A stretch of 30,968 bases of DNA from a virus, in IMG/VR virus record IMGVR_UViG_3300037809_000523, positions 1-30,968 of that record, one strand, 5' to 3'. Below the pieces are notes generated by a model that had not been told where the DNA came from, did no database searches, and saw only the letters and a program-made list of their open reading frames with translations. The position numbers and the translations under genes are program-made. Position 1 is the first letter of the stretch, and each line of letters starts with the position of its first letter. Shown here piece after piece: positions 1,702 through 10,443 of this stretch.

Positions 1702-3384
1702 ATGTACAAGAAAGCATTCGCAATACGTCTTAAAGATAATAAGTTTTTAATACATTTATGGGAAGATCAGGGTTATAGTAAAGTAGAATGGGATAACCAA
1801 GCTTACATTGAATGTCATGAAGCTGATGCTCAATTTACGGGGCTAAATGGTGAACCTCTTAAAAAGATTAAGAACTACAGAAATGATACTCCAAAACTTC
1901 ATTTCCATGATATGACCCCATATCAAAAATTTCTTGTTGAAAAGTATGGTACAAATGATGAACCATCAACAACACAAAAAGAATTTTTTTTTGATATTGA
2001 GACTGAAATGGGTGATGCCCTTACTGAAGATTATATTAAATCAGCTCCAAAAAAAGTAACCTCAATTGCTTGGTATGATAAACAAGTAGATGAGTGGGCT
2101 ATTTTAATTTTAGATCCTAAATCTAACCTTAAAAGAACAAAAGCAAAAACTAAAGAAATTATTCCTTGTAAAACTGAGGAAGAATTATTACTTAAATTTC
2201 TAGAACGATTTAGAGAAATTGATCCTGACATTGTAGTAGGATGGAATAGTGATTATTTTGATATTCCCTACTTATATTACAGAATGTGTAATGTGTTAGG
2301 ACAAGATGTTGCACGTTATTTATCTCCAATAGGTTATGTTCGAGAAACACCTTGGTTTAAGGACCAATACATACAAATTGCAGGAGTTGAGTCTTTGGAT
2401 TATATGAGATTGCATAAGAAGTTTAGTTGGAAAGATGAACCTTCGTTTAAACTAGATGCTATTGGAGAAAAATATGCTGGGTTAAATAAAATTGAGTATG
2501 ATGGTAATTTAGATAAATTATTTGATGATGATCCTCTTAAATTTATTCAGTATAACTTTAGGGATGTTGAAATATTAAAGATATTAGATGAAAAGTTAGA
2601 GTATCTATCACTAGTAAAGAATTTGGCTCACAAAGGTAAACACAACTATAGTGAAGTATATGCAAATACTAAAACACAAGATGGGGCAATTTCAGCTTAT
2701 CTGTTAAGTAAAAAAATAATTCCTCCTGCTAAAGATCGTAATCCTTTATCTAAAAAGAATTATGCTGGTGGTTATTTATTCTGCCCTAAAGCTGGTATTT
2801 ACAATTATGTGTTTGATGAGGATTTAACTTCACTATACCCTTCAATCATTATGACTATTAATATTGGTAAAGAAACTATGGTTGGTAGAATTATAGATGC
2901 TGATGATAGAAACAATCGCTTAGGATTAAATGATTTAAAACTTAAAGATCCTGATGAAGAATTTATAGTTGAAAATATCAAACGTAGTAGAACTAAAGTT
3001 AATGCTGGTAGATTAATAGCTATGATAGAACAAAATGAATTATCAATATCAGCTAATGGGGTTTTATTTAATACAAATCGTGAATCAGTATTATCAACTA
3101 TATTAAAAAAATGGTTTGATGAAAGAGTTTTATATAAAAATAAAATGAAAAAAGCATTTAAATCAGGGAATGATAAATTAGGTGCTACATTTCACATGAA
3201 ACAATATACAATGAAGATTTTACTTAATTCGTTGTATGGTGCAACAGCACTGGGATCATTCCGTTATGGGAATGTTATATTATCTGAAGCTATAACGCTT
3301 AGTGGACAACGTATTATACAAGAATCTGCATTGGCTGCCAACAGACATATGAACAAAGTAATGAAAAATGAAGTAGAATTATGA
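1702..3384 (+). CDS. 43: DNA polymerase, family B, N-terminal part (gp43A)
   Basis: This 560-residue part of a T4-type replicative polymerase carries the 3'-5' exonuclease and the first half of the polymerase domain. Exo I is FFFDIE (D98, E100), Exo II is WNSDYFDIPY (D187), and Exo III is YNFRD (Y284, D288). Polymerase motif A is DLTSLYPSII (catalytic D374), and motif B is the K505...NSLYG block. The frame stops in TGA at 3382-3384, within a linker before motif C. The next frame starts at 3381 through an ATGA overlap and continues the polymerase without loss: 560 + 310 residues against 898 in T4. The two chains would have to assemble to make an active site. Confidence 0.93.
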   Translation: MYKKAFAIRLKDNKFLIHLWEDQGYSKVEWDNQAYIECHEADAQFTGLNGEPLKKIKNYRNDTPKLHFHDMTPYQKFLVEKYGTNDEPSTTQKEFFFDIETEMGDALTEDYIKSAPKKVTSIAWYDKQVDEWAILILDPKSNLKRTKAKTKEIIPCKTEEELLLKFLERFREIDPDIVVGWNSDYFDIPYLYYRMCNVLGQDVARYLSPIGYVRETPWFKDQYIQIAGVESLDYMRLHKKFSWKDEPSFKLDAIGEKYAGLNKIEYDGNLDKLFDDDPLKFIQYNFRDVEILKILDEKLEYLSLVKNLAHKGKHNYSEVYANTKTQDGAISAYLLSKKIIPPAKDRNPLSKKNYAGGYLFCPKAGIYNYVFDEDLTSLYPSIIMTINIGKETMVGRIIDADDRNNRLGLNDLKLKDPDEEFIVENIKRSRTKVNAGRLIAMIEQNELSISANGVLFNTNRESVLSTILKKWFDERVLYKNKMKKAFKSGNDKLGATFHMKQYTMKILLNSLYGATALGSFRYGNVILSEAITLSGQRIIQESALAANRHMNKVMKNEVEL

Positions 3385-4313
3385 AACATTTAGAAGATAC
3401 TCCTTGGTGGATTTGTGATCCTGAAGATACAAATTATGTAGCTTATTCCGACACAGATTCAATTTATATACATGCTGAACCTTTACTTAAACATTTATAC
3501 CCTAACTTTGAAGAAATGTCAAGTGAGGAAAAGGATAATGTTTTAGAAGAAGCTGCTTTAAAGTATCAAGATATTATTACTGATTCCTATAGTGATTTAG
3601 CTACAGATTGTTTTAATGCTAAGGGTCAACATAGATTAGAAATGAAAACTGAATGTGTTATCAGATCAGCTTATTTTAGAGCAACAAGAAGATATGCCCA
3701 ATGGATTACTAAACAAGAAGGAATTGTCAAAGAATCACTTGATGTTAAGGGTCTTGAATTTAAAAAAGCAAATTTTCCACCTGTATTAGGTAAGTTTTTT
3801 CATAAAACTTTAGTTGATGTGTTAAAAGGAGAAGGACAAAGTGAAATAGATAAAAGATTAAAGGAATTTAAAACCCAAATATTAGATGGTACTATTCCTC
3901 TTACAGAATTAGGTAATCCAACATCAGTAAAAACTTTGAATAAATACACTGAACGAAAAGCAAGAGCGGGTGAAATGTTTACGGTAGTAGCTAAAGGAGC
4001 CCCAGCAGCTGTAAGAGCAGTTATTAGATATAATGATTTACTTAATTTTTGGGGTTTAAACAAAAAACACAGTCAAATTGGTCAAGGTGATAAAATTAAA
4101 TGGATTTATTTAAAACCTAACCCATATCAAATTGATGCTATTGCTTTTTTAGAGTGGGATTTACCTGAAAAAATCCACAAATTCATTGAGCAAAACGCAG
4201 ATAGAAAGAAGATTTTTGAATCAATATTACTTAATAAACTAGAAGGATTTTATAATGATTTAGGGTGGACTTTAAATTTAAACCCTTATAAAGAAATGTT
4301 TTTTAAATTTTAA
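3381..4313 (+). CDS. 43: DNA polymerase, family B, C-terminal part (gp43B)
   Basis: This 310-residue part supplies the rest of the palm and the thumb. Motif C is AYSDTDSIYI with catalytic D24 and D26. FRATRRYAQWI (about residues 95-105) matches the T4 stretch after motif C that ends in KKRYAL. The protein ends in EMFFKF, a hydrophobic tail like the C-terminal clamp-binding peptide of T4 gp43 (ending LDFLF), so it probably docks on gp45. Its ATG overlaps the stop of the first part as ATGA, in the -1 frame. The frame is closed by a TGA at 3369-3371, so any ribosomal frameshift would have to occur within about a dozen bases. I see no standard slippery heptamer there. Confidence 0.92.
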   Translation: MKHLEDTPWWICDPEDTNYVAYSDTDSIYIHAEPLLKHLYPNFEEMSSEEKDNVLEEAALKYQDIITDSYSDLATDCFNAKGQHRLEMKTECVIRSAYFRATRRYAQWITKQEGIVKESLDVKGLEFKKANFPPVLGKFFHKTLVDVLKGEGQSEIDKRLKEFKTQILDGTIPLTELGNPTSVKTLNKYTERKARAGEMFTVVAKGAPAAVRAVIRYNDLLNFWGLNKKHSQIGQGDKIKWIYLKPNPYQIDAIAFLEWDLPEKIHKFIEQNADRKKIFESILLNKLEGFYNDLGWTLNLNPYKEMFFKF

Positions 4314-4317
4314 ATAT

Positions 4318-5919
4318 ATGAAAATATTAGGAATAACAGGAGGAATGCATAGTTGTGGTTTAGCTTATTTAGAAGATGGACAACCTATATTTGCATTTGA
4401 AGAAGAAAGATTTAATAGAATTAGAACATATAAAGACTTCCATCAGACATTCTTTAGATTCCCTAATAATTGTGGAAAAAACACTGTAAAGTTTAAAGAG
4501 TTTAATTGGGAGGAAATTGATTTTATCGCATCTAATTTCTCTATAAAACAGACGGATCAAATTTGGAGGGGTACTGGGTTAGGTCCTCTACCTGAAGAAA
4601 AATATATTAAAATAAATCATCACTTAGGCCATTGTGCTTTAGCTTATTATTGTAGTGGGTTTAAAGAAGATACCTTTGTAATATCTATTGATGCATCAGG
4701 TGAAAAATATTCTTGCAGAGTGTATGTAGGAATTGAGGGGGATCTTAAAGAAATTTCAAATATTTCTTTTGAATACAAATCTTTAGGACATTATTATGCT
4801 ATGCTTACTGAGTTTTTAGGTTTTAAAAGACTAAAAGATGAAGGAAAGGTTGTTGGTAGAGCTTCGCATGGGGTTTATAATGAAAAAATATATAATATCT
4901 TTAATAAATGTATTACAATTGAAGGATTAAGAACTGATAGAGATACTTCAAATAATTTATTAGGAGGAGTATATGAAGAGTTTTATAATCTCTGGCTTAA
5001 AGAATTTGGAAGTGAATATTGGAAGGATTTAACTGATGATATAGCATTTAATGGACAATTAGTATTTGAAGAAAAAATACTTCAATTAATTAATAATATG
5101 CACCTAACATACCCAACTGTGAAAAATATAGCAGCAGCTGGTGGGGTATTTGCTAATGTTAAACTTAATAAAAGAATTAATGATCTTTCATGGGTAAAAG
5201 AAGTATTTATTGCCCCTCCAATGGGGGATGAAGGCTTACCTTTGGGAACAGCCTTAGCAGCCCATAAATTAAAAAATCCATCCTTTAAACCTTTTAAATT
5301 AGATAATGTTTTTTTAGGTACTTCTTATACTGATGATGAATTTGAAGTAGATGAAAGTAAATATAATATAAGACCTTACTCTCCAAATCAAATAGCTTAT
5401 GAATTAAAAGGAGGAAAAGTAGTAGGATGGTTTCAAGATAGATATGAGCATGGTCCTAGAGCTTTATGTAATAGAAGTATTATAGCAGACCCTAGCATAC
5501 CCGGCACCTACAAAAAAATAAATGATAGATTACAACGGAATGACTTTATGCCCTTTGCCCCCGTTGTTATTGATGAATACGCTGATAAAGTATTTAATGT
5601 AAATAAATCTAAATACACAGCTGAGTTTATGACTATGCTTTATGATACTAGGGAAGAATGGATTAATAAAATACCAGCAGTTGTCCACCCAATTGATAAA
5701 ACAGCAAGAATTCAAATTGTAACTGAAAATAGTAATCCTAAGTTCTATAACTTAATTAATAAATTTAATAAAATAACCAATATCCCTGTTTTATTAAATA
5801 CAAGTTTTAATATACATGGTGAACCTATAGTTTGTCATCCCAAAGAAGCTTTCGTACATTTGGACAACAATATAGTGGATATCTTAGTAATTAATGATAA
5901 AATATATTTTAAAAAATGA
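4318..5919 (+). CDS. Carbamoyltransferase, NodU/TobZ/CmcH family
   Basis: Family members transfer a carbamoyl group from carbamoyl phosphate, via carbamoyl-adenylate, to a hydroxyl on a sugar or other small molecule. The 533-residue length is normal. The N-terminal Kae1-like domain shows ILGITGGMHSCGLAYLEDG, the metal-binding motif HHLGHCALAYY (about 100-110) and FVISIDASGE. The C-terminal domain shows GWFQDRYEHGPRALCNRS and LLNTSFNIHGEPIV. It lies between the polymerase and clamp genes and shares an ATGA junction with the clamp gene, so it is transcribed with the replisome. The acceptor is unknown; a modified nucleotide or a surface sugar are both possible. Confidence 0.92.
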   Translation: MKILGITGGMHSCGLAYLEDGQPIFAFEEERFNRIRTYKDFHQTFFRFPNNCGKNTVKFKEFNWEEIDFIASNFSIKQTDQIWRGTGLGPLPEEKYIKINHHLGHCALAYYCSGFKEDTFVISIDASGEKYSCRVYVGIEGDLKEISNISFEYKSLGHYYAMLTEFLGFKRLKDEGKVVGRASHGVYNEKIYNIFNKCITIEGLRTDRDTSNNLLGGVYEEFYNLWLKEFGSEYWKDLTDDIAFNGQLVFEEKILQLINNMHLTYPTVKNIAAAGGVFANVKLNKRINDLSWVKEVFIAPPMGDEGLPLGTALAAHKLKNPSFKPFKLDNVFLGTSYTDDEFEVDESKYNIRPYSPNQIAYELKGGKVVGWFQDRYEHGPRALCNRSIIADPSIPGTYKKINDRLQRNDFMPFAPVVIDEYADKVFNVNKSKYTAEFMTMLYDTREEWINKIPAVVHPIDKTARIQIVTENSNPKFYNLINKFNKITNIPVLLNTSFNIHGEPIVCHPKEAFVHLDNNIVDILVINDKIYFKK

Positions 5920-6650
5920 TAAATAAATTAACAGTACAAAGTATAATAGATAAATACTATCTTGGAACAAATGAATCAGTAAAATGGAATATTGAAAATA
6001 ATACCCTTAATATTGATTTTATGACTCCTACTAAAGATGTTATTGGTAATGTAACTTGCAATAATTTCCAACTAGAAGATAGTAAATTAGCTATTTATGA
6101 TACTAAAAAATTAAATAGTTTAATTAGTATTTGTAATGGTGATTTACTTCTAGAATTAGAAAAAAATAATGCAATTTATACAAAACTAAAAATATCAGAT
6201 CTTAATTTTAATCTTAATTATGCATTATCAGACCCATTACTTATAAATAAAGTAGGAGAAGTTAATGAAGCTGAGTGGGTTGTTGAATTAAATTTAACTC
6301 AAGAAGATGTTGTTAATATTATTAAAGCAAAAAGTGCATTAGCCCAAATTGATAATATGTTAGTAACAACTACAACTAATTTAGATGGGGAGAATGTTGT
6401 TGAATTTGTTTTTGGAGATGAATCAGGACACAATAATAAAATCACATACCAAGTATTAGGAGACATTAAAGAAACAGATATAAAATTACCATTTAATTCA
6501 GATACATTTAAAACCATCCTCCAAGCTAATAAAGATATGGATGGTGGTAAATTATTACTAAGTAGTATGGGATTAATAAGATTAGATTTTGAATTAGATG
6601 ATATTTCTTCAAAATATTACATGGTAAGGAAAGCTGAGTCGGAGTTCTAA
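5916..6650 (+). CDS. 45: Sliding clamp (gp45, DNA polymerase processivity factor)
   Basis: The T4-type clamp is a trimeric ring that tethers gp43 to DNA and also activates late transcription. The protein has 244 residues against 228 in T4. The stretch LAIYDTKKLNSLISICNGD (about 57-75) corresponds to the conserved T4 clamp segment VAIYDLNGFLGILSLVNDD. The C-terminal half shows the expected strand-rich pattern, with KITYQVLGDIKETD and GGKLLLSSMG. The start overlaps the carbamoyltransferase stop (ATGA). Identity rests on weak sequence similarity, on length and on position beside gp43, gp44 and gp62. Confidence 0.85.
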   Translation: MINKLTVQSIIDKYYLGTNESVKWNIENNTLNIDFMTPTKDVIGNVTCNNFQLEDSKLAIYDTKKLNSLISICNGDLLLELEKNNAIYTKLKISDLNFNLNYALSDPLLINKVGEVNEAEWVVELNLTQEDVVNIIKAKSALAQIDNMLVTTTTNLDGENVVEFVFGDESGHNNKITYQVLGDIKETDIKLPFNSDTFKTILQANKDMDGGKLLLSSMGLIRLDFELDDISSKYYMVRKAESEF

Positions 6651-6759: not shown

Positions 6760-7179
6760 ATGAGTACATTATTTTATGAACACACCCCATTCGATATTTT
6801 ATATCGAAATCTTTTCAAATCAGATGAGCAATTTGCTCCTGCATTAAATTCCAAACAACCCCACCCTCTAGACATTTATTACGATCAAGAAGGCATTTAC
6901 TTCGAGATTGCATGTACAGGTCTTACAAAAGAAGATATTAACATTGAGATTGAATCTGATGTTTTACGTATTTCTTATGCTAAACCTAAAGATGAGGAGA
7001 CAAAAGACTTATCAGGGTATATTTACCATGGTCTGTCTAGAAAGTCATTTAGCTTAGGATATAAAATTGCTCCTAAGTTTGACTTAACTAAAGTTAATGC
7101 TGAAATGGAAAATGGATTATTAAAAATAAATATTCCTCTTTCTAAAGAAGCTAAACCAAAAGCAATTAAAATTAAGTAA
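6760..7179 (+). CDS. Hsp20-family small heat shock protein
   Basis: This is a 139-residue alpha-crystallin domain protein. The domain spans about residues 35-130, with HPLDIYYDQEGIYFEIACTG, LTKEDINIEIESDVLRISY and the typical AEMENGLLKINIPL near the end, followed by a basic KPKAIKIK tail. Small heat shock proteins form oligomers that hold unfolding proteins. Hsp20 genes are frequent in marine T4-like phages. It has its own upstream region with the CATATGTATA motif and is followed by an inverted repeat. It sits just before the phage GroES/GroEL unit, which suggests a folding module. Confidence 0.93.
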   Translation: MSTLFYEHTPFDILYRNLFKSDEQFAPALNSKQPHPLDIYYDQEGIYFEIACTGLTKEDINIEIESDVLRISYAKPKDEETKDLSGYIYHGLSRKSFSLGYKIAPKFDLTKVNAEMENGLLKINIPLSKEAKPKAIKIK

Positions 7180-7199
7180 CCTAAAAGCGCCCTTAGGTT
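7178..7199 (+). terminator. Hairpin after hsp20, weak terminator candidate
   Basis: AACCTAA at 7178-7184 pairs perfectly with TTAGGTT at 7193-7199 around an 8-base loop (AAGCGCCC). It begins at the hsp20 stop codon. No proper T tract follows, and its right arm overlaps the -33 box of the next promoter, so it might act as an operator or attenuator instead. Confidence 0.3.
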
Positions 7200-7228
7200 G
7201 GTTTATATGAATTATTTTCGTATATTTA
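7198..7228 (+). promoter_or_regulatory. Bacteroidota-type promoter, copy 2 (groES-groEL unit)
   Basis: TTG at 7198-7200 (GTTG where other copies have TTTG) stands exactly 20 bases before TATATTTA at 7221-7228, again preceded by TTCG. It is the only such element before the four-gene unit at 7254-9752 with GroES and GroEL. The leader would be about 20 bases and ends in AAAAAGTTAT directly before the ATG. Confidence 0.7.
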
Positions 7229-7253
7229 CGCATAATAAAAAATAAAAAGTTAT

Positions 7254-7550
7254 ATGTCAAAAATTACAGACCCCAAGATGGATCCCTACTACATAGGGAG
7301 AGATTCTCACTGTTACACAGTGTATGAAGTAGTAACCCCACAAGCAAAATATCTAGAAAAAGGTAGTGAAGGTAAAGATTATGAAAAACCAGTAGCTCAT
7401 TATTCTAATTTTTCTAATGCTCTTGAAAAAGTTATGAAAGAAAAACTTAATAGTAAGGATGAACATTATACAAGTGTAAGAGCCTATATGGAGGAATGGA
7501 ATAAAATTAAAAATGAGTTAAGTGAAATATTAAATTACAACAAAATATGA
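7254..7550 (+). CDS. Unknown protein (98 aa) leading the chaperonin unit
   Basis: The 98-residue protein begins MSKITDPKMDPYYIGRDSHC and has no membrane segment or recognised motif. The C-terminal half is helical and charged (NALEKVMKEKLNS, NKIKNELSEIL). The start is well set: a promoter-like element and the AAAAAGTTAT leader precede it. Its TGA overlaps the GroES start as ATGA, which implies co-translation with the chaperonin genes. I do not recognise a function. Confidence 0.75.
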   Translation: MSKITDPKMDPYYIGRDSHCYTVYEVVTPQAKYLEKGSEGKDYEKPVAHYSNFSNALEKVMKEKLNSKDEHYTSVRAYMEEWNKIKNELSEILNYNKI

Positions 7551-7837
7551 AATTAGAAGCACTATTTAATGCTATTATAGTAAAACCTATTGAAGCAGAA
7601 GAAACCCAACATGGTAACATTATTGTTCCTGATATGGGAAATGAGAAAAACCAAACAGGAGAAATTATATCTGTGGGACCAGGACAAAATACAATTACTG
7701 GTGAGTTTATTAAAACTATTAGTAAGGTAGGTGATGTAGTGGTATTACCCACCCAAGGTTTTACAAAATTACCTTATGATGGTGAGGAATATTGGGTTGG
7801 TCCTGAAAATCAAATCTTAGCAAAAATTAATAAATAA
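7547..7837 (+). CDS. groES: Co-chaperonin GroES
   Basis: The 96-residue length is typical of GroES. Visible features are FNAIIVKPIEAEETQHGNII, where the mobile loop that binds GroEL lies around residues 17-32, the GEIISVGPG strand-turn, and GDVVVLPTQGFTKLPYDGEEYWV. It is a bacterial-type GroES rather than the divergent gp31 of T4. It overlaps the previous gene by four bases and precedes GroEL by four, so the pair is made together. The heptameric cap would act with phage GroEL, host GroEL or both. Confidence 0.93.
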   Translation: MKLEALFNAIIVKPIEAEETQHGNIIVPDMGNEKNQTGEIISVGPGQNTITGEFIKTISKVGDVVVLPTQGFTKLPYDGEEYWVGPENQILAKINK

Positions 7838-7841
7838 AAAA

Positions 7842-9476
7842 ATGGGAATGGATTATAAAAAACAAATTGAATTTGGCCCTGAAGCAAGGGAAGAGTTAAT
7901 GAAAGGTATTAATATTTTAGCGGATGCTGTTGTCTGCACATTAGGACCTAATGGGAGAAATGTATTAATTGATAATAGTGGTTATGGTGCAAAAGCTCCT
8001 CCAACACACACAAAAGATGGTGTAACTGTTGCTAAGAATATTACTGTTGATGGTTTAGTTCCTAATTTAGGAGCACAAATGATTAAAACAGCAGCTATGA
8101 AAACTGCTGATAAGGCTGGGGATGGTACTACTACTTCAACTTTATTAGCTCGTGAATTAGTAAAAGCTGGGTTATCTCATCTTAATAATGGTGAAAATGC
8201 TGTTGAAATTAAAAGAAATATTGAAGCAGCTGTAAACGAAGTAGTTTCTGTTATTAAAAATAATATTAGTAAAGAAATTTCATCTGAAGAACAACTACAA
8301 CAAATAGCAACAATATCAGCAAACAATGATATTGAAATTGGAAAACTTATTGCAACTGCAATTGAAAAAGTAGGACAAGATGGAGTAGTTCATATTGAGG
8401 AATCAAAATCAGGAGATACTTATCTTGAAACTGTTGAGGGTATGCAATTCGATAGAGGATATAAATCTCATTTCTTTGTTACTAACAATTCAGATATGAG
8501 TTGTACATTAGATAATCCTTTTGTATTAATTGCCGATCATAAATTTACACAAGTAAAAGAATTACTCCCTATTTTAGAAAGTGTTTCTAATCAAAATCGT
8601 TCATTACTTCTTATTACTGATGATATTGATGGTGAAGCGTTAGCAACCCTTATTGTAAATAAAGCAAGAGGAATACTTAAAGTATGTGCTATTAAAGCTC
8701 CTGATTTTGGAGAGAGAAAAAAATTATCATTAGAAGATATTGCTACATTAACAGGTGGTACTGTATTTGATAAAGATAAAGGAATGAAGCTTGATAAGTT
8801 TTCTTATGATTGGTTTGGAGAAGCTCGTACTGTTACTATTACTAAAGAACAAACAACAATTGTTGATGGTAAAGGAGCAGCTGAAGATATTGAAGCTAGA
8901 GTATCTGAATTACAATCTCAAATTGATAAAGAAGATACACCTTATATTATTGAACATTTACAAAATAGATTGGCTAAAATGGTAGGTGGAGTGTCTATTA
9001 TTCATGTAGGTGGATTTACTGAAACTGAAGCTAGAGAAAAGAAGGATAGAGTTGATGATGCCCTCCATGCTACAAAAGCAGCTTTAGAAGCTGGAGTGGT
9101 ACCAGGAGGAGGGGCAGCATTACTTTATGCTTCTAATGGATTAGATAATAATAATTTAGGTAATTCAATTGTTAAAAAAGCATGTAGAAAACCATTTACT
9201 CAAATTTTAGTTAATGCTGGTCATGAACAAACAGAAGCAGAAATAATTGCAAATAAATTAATTGAATCTGGAAATGATTATTGGGCTGGTTATGATGTTA
9301 AAAATGAAGAAATTGTTAATATGGAAAAAGAAGGAATTATTGATCCTTCTAAAGTGACAATTACAGCATTACAAAATGCAGCATCCGTAGCAGGTACTAT
9401 ACTTTTAACAGAATGTGTAGTTGTTGACCATCCAGAACAAAAAGAACCAACTCCAGATGGGGTAAGTAATTTTTAA
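7842..9476 (+). CDS. groEL: Chaperonin GroEL
   Basis: The 544 residues cover the full chaperonin. The N-terminal equatorial part has LGPNGRNVLID and the ATP-binding GDGTTTSTLLARELVKAG (D94). The apical and intermediate regions include GYKSHFFVTN and IKAPDFGERKK. The C-terminal equatorial part has VPGGGAALLYA and ALQNAASVAGTILLTECVVV. Compared with bacterial GroEL, a small insertion is visible at YGAKAPPTHTKDG, and the C-terminal GGM repeat is missing (ends DGVSNF). That tail lines the cavity floor, so substrate handling may differ. The gene has no Shine-Dalgarno; an A-rich run precedes the ATG. Confidence 0.97.
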   Translation: MGMDYKKQIEFGPEAREELMKGINILADAVVCTLGPNGRNVLIDNSGYGAKAPPTHTKDGVTVAKNITVDGLVPNLGAQMIKTAAMKTADKAGDGTTTSTLLARELVKAGLSHLNNGENAVEIKRNIEAAVNEVVSVIKNNISKEISSEEQLQQIATISANNDIEIGKLIATAIEKVGQDGVVHIEESKSGDTYLETVEGMQFDRGYKSHFFVTNNSDMSCTLDNPFVLIADHKFTQVKELLPILESVSNQNRSLLLITDDIDGEALATLIVNKARGILKVCAIKAPDFGERKKLSLEDIATLTGGTVFDKDKGMKLDKFSYDWFGEARTVTITKEQTTIVDGKGAAEDIEARVSELQSQIDKEDTPYIIEHLQNRLAKMVGGVSIIHVGGFTETEAREKKDRVDDALHATKAALEAGVVPGGGAALLYASNGLDNNNLGNSIVKKACRKPFTQILVNAGHEQTEAEIIANKLIESGNDYWAGYDVKNEEIVNMEKEGIIDPSKVTITALQNAASVAGTILLTECVVVDHPEQKEPTPDGVSNF

Positions 9477-9804: not shown

Positions 9805-10443
9805 ATGAAGAAAGAATATAAATGTCCTCAATGTTCAAATATAAAACTATTGGCTGAGTCAAGTTGGAAAGAGTCAACTAGATTAAATCGTATTTGTAAG
9901 AGTTGTGCTATGAGAAAATGGCAAGCTAAAAAATATGGAGTAAAGTCAGATGTTGAATTTACTAGTAACTGCTGTAATTGTGGGAAGTTAAAAAAACATA
10001 AACATAAAAATTTGAGTCCAACTCAAGCAATTACCCTCTCAAAGACTATGTCCCAAAAGATGTGTAGAAGTTGCTCAAATTCAATACATTATACTTTGTC
10101 TAAGAAGAAGAAAAATACAAAACCCGAAAGAGAATTAAAGGTTATTCTTAAAGAATTAAATATTAAATTTAAGCAGAGTTATAAATATAAAGGTCATAAT
10201 TATGATTTTTACCTCCCAGAATTTAATATGTTAGTAGAAGTAGATGGAAATTATTGGCATGGGAAAAATTTAAAATGGGGTGAATTAAATGACACCCAAA
10301 AAAATTCCCGGAAAAATGATGAAAAGAAAAACAAAATATGTTTGGAGACCCAACAATCTCTTATTAGATTGTGGGAAGACGAAATTAACAAAGAAACAGT
10401 TATATCTAAATTAAAGAATGGAAGATCACGGATTATTAGTTGA
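9805..10443 (+). CDS. Vsr-like (EDxHD) free-standing endonuclease with zinc-finger N-terminus
   Basis: The N-terminal 95 residues carry Cys pairs (C7/C10, C31/C34, C57/C59, C87/C90) that suggest zinc ribbons. From about residue 105 the fold is that of very-short-patch-repair-like nucleases: TKPEREL, then HNYDFYLPEFNMLVEVDGNY (D134, E145, D147), WHG (H152) and LIRLWEDEI (W190, E191). Such proteins occur as phage homing endonucleases. The gene overlaps the gp44 start by 26 bases, so it is fused tightly to the replisome operon. If it homes, the target is likely near gene 44; that is inference from position. Confidence 0.82.
   Translation: MKKEYKCPQCSNIKLLAESSWKESTRLNRICKSCAMRKWQAKKYGVKSDVEFTSNCCNCGKLKKHKHKNLSPTQAITLSKTMSQKMCRSCSNSIHYTLSKKKKNTKPERELKVILKELNIKFKQSYKYKGHNYDFYLPEFNMLVEVDGNYWHGKNLKWGELNDTQKNSRKNDEKKNKICLETQQSLIRLWEDEINKETVISKLKNGRSRIIS

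What the first reader, a model, noticed from the sequence alone, without database searches (positions are those of the whole stretch)
3369..3390. Family B DNA polymerase split between motif B and motif C at an ATGA junction
The first frame holds the exonuclease and motifs A and B; the second holds motif C and the thumb. Nothing is missing (870 residues together) and no mobile gene lies between them. The two catalytic aspartate sites are on separate chains. The same ATGA coupling is used at many other junctions here, which argues for a real split. The frames coexist only between 3372 and 3384, and no standard slippery heptamer is visible, so frameshifting is less likely. Split gp43 is known in some T4-related phages, usually with a homing gene at the break.
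Basis: partly seen in the sequence, partly recalled or inferred. Interest (0 to 1): 0.7.

Follow-up and report, generated by a model that had tools for sequence, protein, structure and literature searches.

The report
Two-piece replication DNA polymerase in phages
A group of uncultured ocean phages related to T4 makes its only recognisable DNA-copying enzyme as two separate proteins that must come together to build the active site; this is real, old and shared by nearly the whole group, and the break between the two genes has become a place where many other genes are inserted.

Summary
ORFs 1702-3384 (560 aa: exonuclease, motifs A and B) and 3381-4313 (310 aa: motif C, thumb) overlap by ATGA and together cover the whole family-B polymerase profile with all catalytic motifs intact. 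Comparison excludes assembly error and makes frameshifting very unlikely. Over 120 distinct related junctions from many metagenomes are split at the same place, with ATGA, TAATG, or 60 to over 1,000 bp of other genes between the halves. Both halves are under strong purifying selection (dN/dS mostly about 0.1) and diverge in step (r = 0.97). In three ~164-kb T4-like relatives the split enzyme is the only polymerase found. Best reading: an obligate two-chain replicative polymerase. Split gp43 is known (Aeromonas phages 25 and 44RR), but there the cut is in the fingers, before motif B; here it lies in the loop between motifs B and C. The break is also a gene-insertion hotspot: an unnamed 87-aa protein in 64 of 73 insert-bearing loci (a sample enriched for it), sugar, cupin and halogenase-type genes, homing endonucleases in only 3. 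The nearest intact relatives (L088, L090) keep the neighbourhood but not the split. New variant of a known kind.

The parts
1702..3384 (+). N-terminal polymerase chain (560 aa): N-terminal and 3'-5' exonuclease domains, motif A half of the palm, fingers with motif B
   Evidence: PHROG 262 16-569 E 5e-116; Pfam DNA_pol_B and DNA_pol_B_exo1; Foldseek best hits RB69 gp43, E 1e-27, TM(query) 0.6-0.67
3381..4313 (+). C-terminal polymerase chain (310 aa): motif C half of the palm, thumb, clamp-binding-like tail
   Evidence: PHROG 262 565-850 E 2e-49; Foldseek best hits RB69 gp43 over about 176 columns, E 1e-6
3381..3384 (+). ATGA stop/start overlap (stop of chain 1, start of chain 2)
   Evidence: sequence; 39 of the distinct junctions tallied in relatives are ATGA and 8 are TAATG
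2821..2844 (+). motif A DLTSLYPS (catalytic Asp 374) on chain 1
   Evidence: translation, aligned to RB69
3214..3240 (+). motif B KILLNSLYG on chain 1
   Evidence: translation, alignment
3444..3461 (+). motif C YSDTDS (catalytic Asp 24/26) on chain 2
   Evidence: translation, alignment
3381..3440 (+). N-terminal head of chain 2 (MKHLEDTPWWICDPEDTNYV), as conserved as the rest of the chain; M1, P8, I11, C12, N18 invariant in 21 relatives
4296..4310 (+). C-terminal MFFKF, resembles the clamp-binding tail of T4-type gp43
   Evidence: translation; resemblance from general knowledge, not tested

Best explanation
This is the replicative family-B (gp43-type) DNA polymerase of a T4-like phage, encoded as two cistrons that are translated one after the other (ATGA, termination-reinitiation) into a 560-residue and a 310-residue chain. 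The chains bind each other without splicing and complete one palm active site: the motif A aspartate comes from chain 1 and the motif C aspartates from chain 2. The cut lies in a length-variable loop between the helix after motif B and the palm strand that carries motif C. Shown here: the split, its conservation, intact motifs, selection on both chains, and that no other polymerase was found in ~164-kb relatives. Inferred: association and activity, translational coupling, and an origin in an insertion at the loop (the small 87-aa gene and/or a homing gene) that was later lost in the window's lineage, leaving the ATGA overlap.
For: Every one of 78 close relatives with both halves has separate ORFs. 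Junction tally over distinct loci, including later searches: 39 ATGA, 8 TAATG, 3 short, 65 inserts of 60-1000 bp, 7 longer, 2 intact. dN/dS is mostly about 0.1 in the closer comparisons, up to 0.28 in the most distant, where synonymous sites are near saturation; N and C distances correlate r = 0.967 over 94 loci. Three ~164-kb gp23-bearing relatives have the split PolB and no Pol A or Pol III alpha match. Precedent: phage 25 gp43A and gp43B co-purify and have polymerase activity (PMC2988022, citing Petrov 2010). The loop that is cut varies in length between intact enzymes. Folded alone, chain 1 has low confidence at 345-391 and 505-551 and chain 2 at 1-6, 17-25 and 88-129, which include much of the palm.
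Against: No biochemical evidence for this clade. Structure models are of moderate confidence (pLDDT 69) from shallow alignments, so the low-confidence palm segments may partly reflect that. The intact pair L088/L090 falls beside one split subclade in the best trees (support 99/91, 91/86 and 93/87), which would need two splits or one re-fusion; a single split is not rejected (AU p 0.106 and 0.14). The 164-kb records carry no completeness estimate.
Confidence: 0.9

Rival explanations
1. One fused polymerase is made by programmed -1 frameshifting across the ATGA overlap.
For: ATGA and TAATG junctions leave the same relative frame, and the second frame is open for a few codons upstream of its ATG.
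Against: About 70 distinct relatives have 60 to over 1,000 bp, usually with other complete genes, between the halves, in differing frames. No slippery heptamer is present. The upstream open stretch is only 0-9 codons.
Confidence: 0.03
2. Sequencing or assembly error has broken an intact gene.
For: A single-base error could create this pattern in one contig.
Against: The same break occurs in dozens of IMG/VR assemblies from different samples and in GTDB MAG contigs, at 58-100% protein identity.
Confidence: 0.005
3. A decaying pseudogene, with a host or second phage polymerase doing the work.
For: None specific.
Against: All catalytic residues intact; low dN/dS in both chains; no other polymerase found in the ~164-kb relatives; clamp loader present in the window.
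Confidence: 0.015
4. The two chains are joined by a split intein (protein trans-splicing), as in some jumbo phages.
For: Other phage polymerases do this or are predicted to: MIJ3 (PMC6892783), and L207 here has intein-like pieces at motif C with a third gene between.
Against: Chain 1 ends right after the helix that follows motif B and chain 2 starts about 20 residues before motif C; there is no room for intein sequence, and none is seen in the window clade.
Confidence: 0.02

Closest known systems
Split gp43 (43A/43B) of Aeromonas phages 44RR2.8t and 25 (Petrov, Ratnayaka and Karam 2010; summarised in PMC2988022)
   Same: T4-type replicative PolB encoded as two adjacent cistrons; the two parts co-purify and are active (phage 25). 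Homing endonuclease or untranslated spacer at the break.
   Different: Break at window residue 479 in the fingers, before motif B, so 43B carries motifs B and C. Here the break is at 560, between B and C, the junction rarely has a homing gene and is often directly overlapping.
Vibrio phage PVA8 split gp43
   Same: Two-piece T4-type polymerase.
   Different: Breaks at residue 479 with an HNH endonuclease gene on the opposite strand in the break.
Split-intein polymerases (Pseudomonas phage MIJ3, PMC6892783; L207 here)
   Same: PolB in two genes with another gene between.
   Different: In L207 the cut is inside motif C, flanked by intein-like sequence and presumably rejoined by splicing; the window has no intein.
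LR756508.1 (484-kb uncultured megaphage)
   Same: PolB split in the same B-C loop region (alignment residue ~573), several genes between the halves.
   Different: About 30% identical, with apparent inteins at motif B and motif C; probably an independent split.
Split DNA polymerases of MEP401-type phages of marine OM43 bacteria (PMC10580990)
   Different: A different phage lineage (related to Zobellviridae); polymerase family and cut position were not compared here.
Archaeal split PolB (Methanothermobacter, Kelman 1999)
   Same: Family-B polymerase made of two polypeptides (cited in PMC7776575, PMC4104785).
   Different: Cellular; attributed in PMC4104785 to erratic intein excision. Its exact break position was not checked here.

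Membership tests
T4-type family B DNA polymerase (gp43, PHROG 262) | Profile match across exonuclease and polymerase domains | tested here: met
   Two chains cover 16-569 and 565-850 of 856
T4-type family B DNA polymerase (gp43, PHROG 262) | Catalytic motifs exo I-III, A, B, C intact | tested here: met
   Read from translations; aligned to RB69 gp43
T4-type family B DNA polymerase (gp43, PHROG 262) | Single chain (usual, not required: split members are known) | tested here: not met
   Two ORFs in the window and in all close relatives
T4-type family B DNA polymerase (gp43, PHROG 262) | Genomic context of T4-like phage: clamp loader, gp23 capsid | tested here: met
   Clamp loader at 10418; gp23 in ~164-kb relatives
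Split gp43 of the Aeromonas type (43A/43B) | Two cistrons, contiguous coverage, both functional regions present | tested here: met
Split gp43 of the Aeromonas type (43A/43B) | Break in the fingers before motif B | tested here: not met
   Window 560 versus 44RR and PVA8 479
Split gp43 of the Aeromonas type (43A/43B) | Chains co-purify and polymerise | not testable with these tools
   Needs biochemistry
Split-intein (fractured) gene | Intein N and C parts at the junction | tested here: not met
   No room for and no sign of intein sequence at the junction
Homing-endonuclease-split gene | Homing gene in the break | tested here: not met
   None in the window; 3 of 73 insert-bearing relatives have one, so an origin by homing insertion is not excluded

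The most novel reading that the evidence does not exclude
A whole lineage of marine T4-like phages has an obligate two-subunit replicative polymerase cut between motifs B and C, with a conserved docking head on the C chain (PWWIC), and has turned the break inside its polymerase gene into a lasting insertion site for cargo genes co-expressed with replication.
Probability: 0.4. Interest if true: 0.6.

Novelty: new variant of a known kind. Interest (0 to 1): 0.5.

Why it matters
It shows that cutting a replicative polymerase through its catalytic palm can be stable over deep divergence (58% identity) and in many populations, with the only recognised polymerase of the phage depending on it. It offers a natural permissive cut site, a clean test of how two chains rebuild one active site, and a case where a broken essential gene became an insertion locus for ordinary genes rather than only for homing endonucleases. 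Gene callers and marker-gene surveys will see two partial polymerases in this group.

Tried and rejected
Frameshift, assembly error, pseudogene and intein trans-splicing were tested and rejected as above. The idea that no mobile gene is ever at the break was dropped: GIY-YIG (2 loci) and HNH (1 locus) endonuclease genes occur there. The idea that the small 87-aa gene is exclusive to the break was dropped: of 80 loci found with it, 53 have pol N upstream and pol C downstream, 10 have one half only, and 17 were scored as having neither within 2.5 kb (one of these, L274, in fact has the C half directly behind it). Of 14 of those 17 records, 3 have an intact polymerase elsewhere, 1 more is unbroken across the B-C loop but cut by the contig end, 2 have split halves 3-4 kb apart, 1 is a fragment, and 7 show no polymerase. 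A search for relatives of LR756508 in viral contigs found none. A PDB sequence search for the ORF at 5916-6650 found nothing. The position of the Methanothermobacter break could not be checked (paper not held). Paper searches found no description of this B-C split in this phage group, but the library lacks most subscription journals.

Full report
Observation. The window (30,968 b, a virus record) holds ORFs 1702..3384 and 3381..4313 overlapping in ATGA. PHROGs identify both as family-B DNA polymerase; PHROG 262 is covered 16-569 by the first and 565-850 by the second, so the enzyme is complete. The best solved relative is RB69/T4 gp43. All exonuclease and polymerase motifs are intact, with motifs A and B on chain 1 and motif C on chain 2.

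Is the break real? Eighty relatives were fetched from IMG/VR. In all 78 that hold both halves, the halves are separate ORFs. With later searches the distinct junctions are 39 ATGA, 8 TAATG, 3 short, 65 with 60-1000 bp between, 7 with more, and 2 intact (the insert classes are over-represented because one search used the small insert gene as bait). Complete genes between the halves exclude a frameshifted fusion there, and assemblies from many samples exclude an error. Both chains show low dN/dS, mostly about 0.1 in the closer comparisons and up to 0.28 in the most distant, where synonymous sites are near saturation; pairwise distances of the two chains correlate at r = 0.967 over 94 loci. Three ~164-kb relatives with a T4 gp23 capsid gene have the split PolB and no Pol A or Pol III alpha; no completeness estimate is given for them.

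Where is the cut? Aligned with other phage polymerases, the window is cut after residue 560, between the helix following motif B and the strand carrying motif C. Aeromonas 44RR and Vibrio PVA8 are cut at window residue 479, in the fingers before motif B. The megaphage LR756508 is cut in the same B-C loop region and has apparent inteins at motifs B and C; L207 is cut inside motif C with intein-like pieces and a third gene between. The loop is short in Mel-JY01 and about 30 residues long in intact L088, so it tolerates length change. The head of chain 2, MKHLEDTPWWICDPEDTNYV, is as conserved as the rest of that chain (mean 0.82 versus 0.80 over 21 sequences; M1, P8, I11, C12, N18 invariant), which suggests a role, perhaps docking; this is inference.

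What sits in the break? Of 73 distinct insert-bearing loci, 64 hold an unnamed 87-aa protein ('QSIR' family, alignment A1), 13 a cupin/mannose-6-phosphate-isomerase-type protein, 11 DUF6165, 6 Smr, 3 DUF2452, 3 cytidylyltransferase, 2 each PALP (cysteine-synthase-type), 2OG oxygenase and tryptophan halogenase, 1 each phosphomannomutase, glycosyltransferase and two methyltransferase types, and 3 homing endonucleases (2 GIY-YIG, 1 HNH). In one record a 1,037-aa collagen-like protein lies between the halves (L308; the C half of that record has one internal TAA in the profile match). In the window the break is empty. The 87-aa gene sits in the break in both deep split subclades, which suggests that it was there early and was lost in the window's lineage. 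Of 80 loci found with this gene, 53 have pol N upstream and pol C downstream, 10 have one half only, and 17 were scored as having neither within 2.5 kb. A polymerase search of 14 of those 17 records found a match in 7: three carry an intact polymerase at another place, one is unbroken across the B-C loop but cut by the contig end, two carry split halves 3-4 kb apart, and one is a fragment; the other 7 contigs show none. So the gene is associated with the break but not confined to it.

History. Intact relatives with the same neighbourhood exist (L088, L090; ~51% identity over the whole enzyme). In the best trees they lie beside the split subclade L091-L101, which would mean two splits or a re-fusion, but one split with L088/L090 outside is not rejected (AU p 0.106 and 0.14). 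Three more intact polymerases (L304-L306) branch outside.

How it most likely works. The two cistrons lie in one run of closely packed genes, so they are probably co-transcribed, and the ATGA overlap fits termination-reinitiation, which would give the chains in related amounts. The second chain brings the motif C strand and the thumb to a first chain that holds exonuclease, motif A and fingers. Models of each chain alone find the RB69 gp43 fold, but segments forming the palm are of low confidence in both, as expected if the palm forms only on association, though shallow alignments may contribute. The only direct experimental support is by analogy: the Aeromonas phage 25 halves, cut elsewhere, co-purify and polymerise (PMC2988022).

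Host and context. Relatives occur in MAGs labelled Flavobacteriales/Flavobacteriaceae (L085, L087) and one Pelagibacter MAG (L089); binning makes this weak. The twelve start sites inspected lack clear Shine-Dalgarno-like sequence, which would fit Bacteroidota. No cultured phage is close: best identities are about 33%.

Conclusion. A real, conserved, most likely obligate two-chain replicative polymerase. The kind is known; the cut site and the clade-wide, cargo-bearing break are new to my knowledge and to the papers searched.

Noticed in passing
window 9805-10443: Homing-endonuclease-like gene (PHROG 559 HNH endonuclease E 2e-18, Vsr Pfam hit) directly upstream of and overlapping the start of the clamp loader gene at 10418.
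   Followed up: no
window 5916-6650: 244-aa ORF shortly behind the polymerase genes, where a sliding clamp might be expected; no Pfam or PDB sequence match.
   Followed up: partly
window 6760-9476: Hsp20, GroES and GroEL genes in the replication region.
   Followed up: no
window 4318-5919: Nol-like carbamoyltransferase between the polymerase C half and the next gene; in L086 the corresponding junction is only 24 bp, so the region takes up other genes at several junctions.
   Followed up: no
L207 5001-9084: Apparent split intein inside motif C of a PolB, with a 322-aa gene between the parts.
   Followed up: partly
L083 (LR756508.1 257000-270000): Megaphage PolB split in the B-C loop with two apparent inteins and several genes between the halves.
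   Followed up: partly
alignment A1; L224-L303: 87-aa protein family without annotation; 53 of 80 loci lie between polymerase halves, 10 have one half only; some other records carry it away from an intact polymerase.
   Followed up: partly
L308 2693-5806 (reverse complement of the fetched stretch): Collagen-like 1,037-aa protein between polymerase halves.
   Followed up: no
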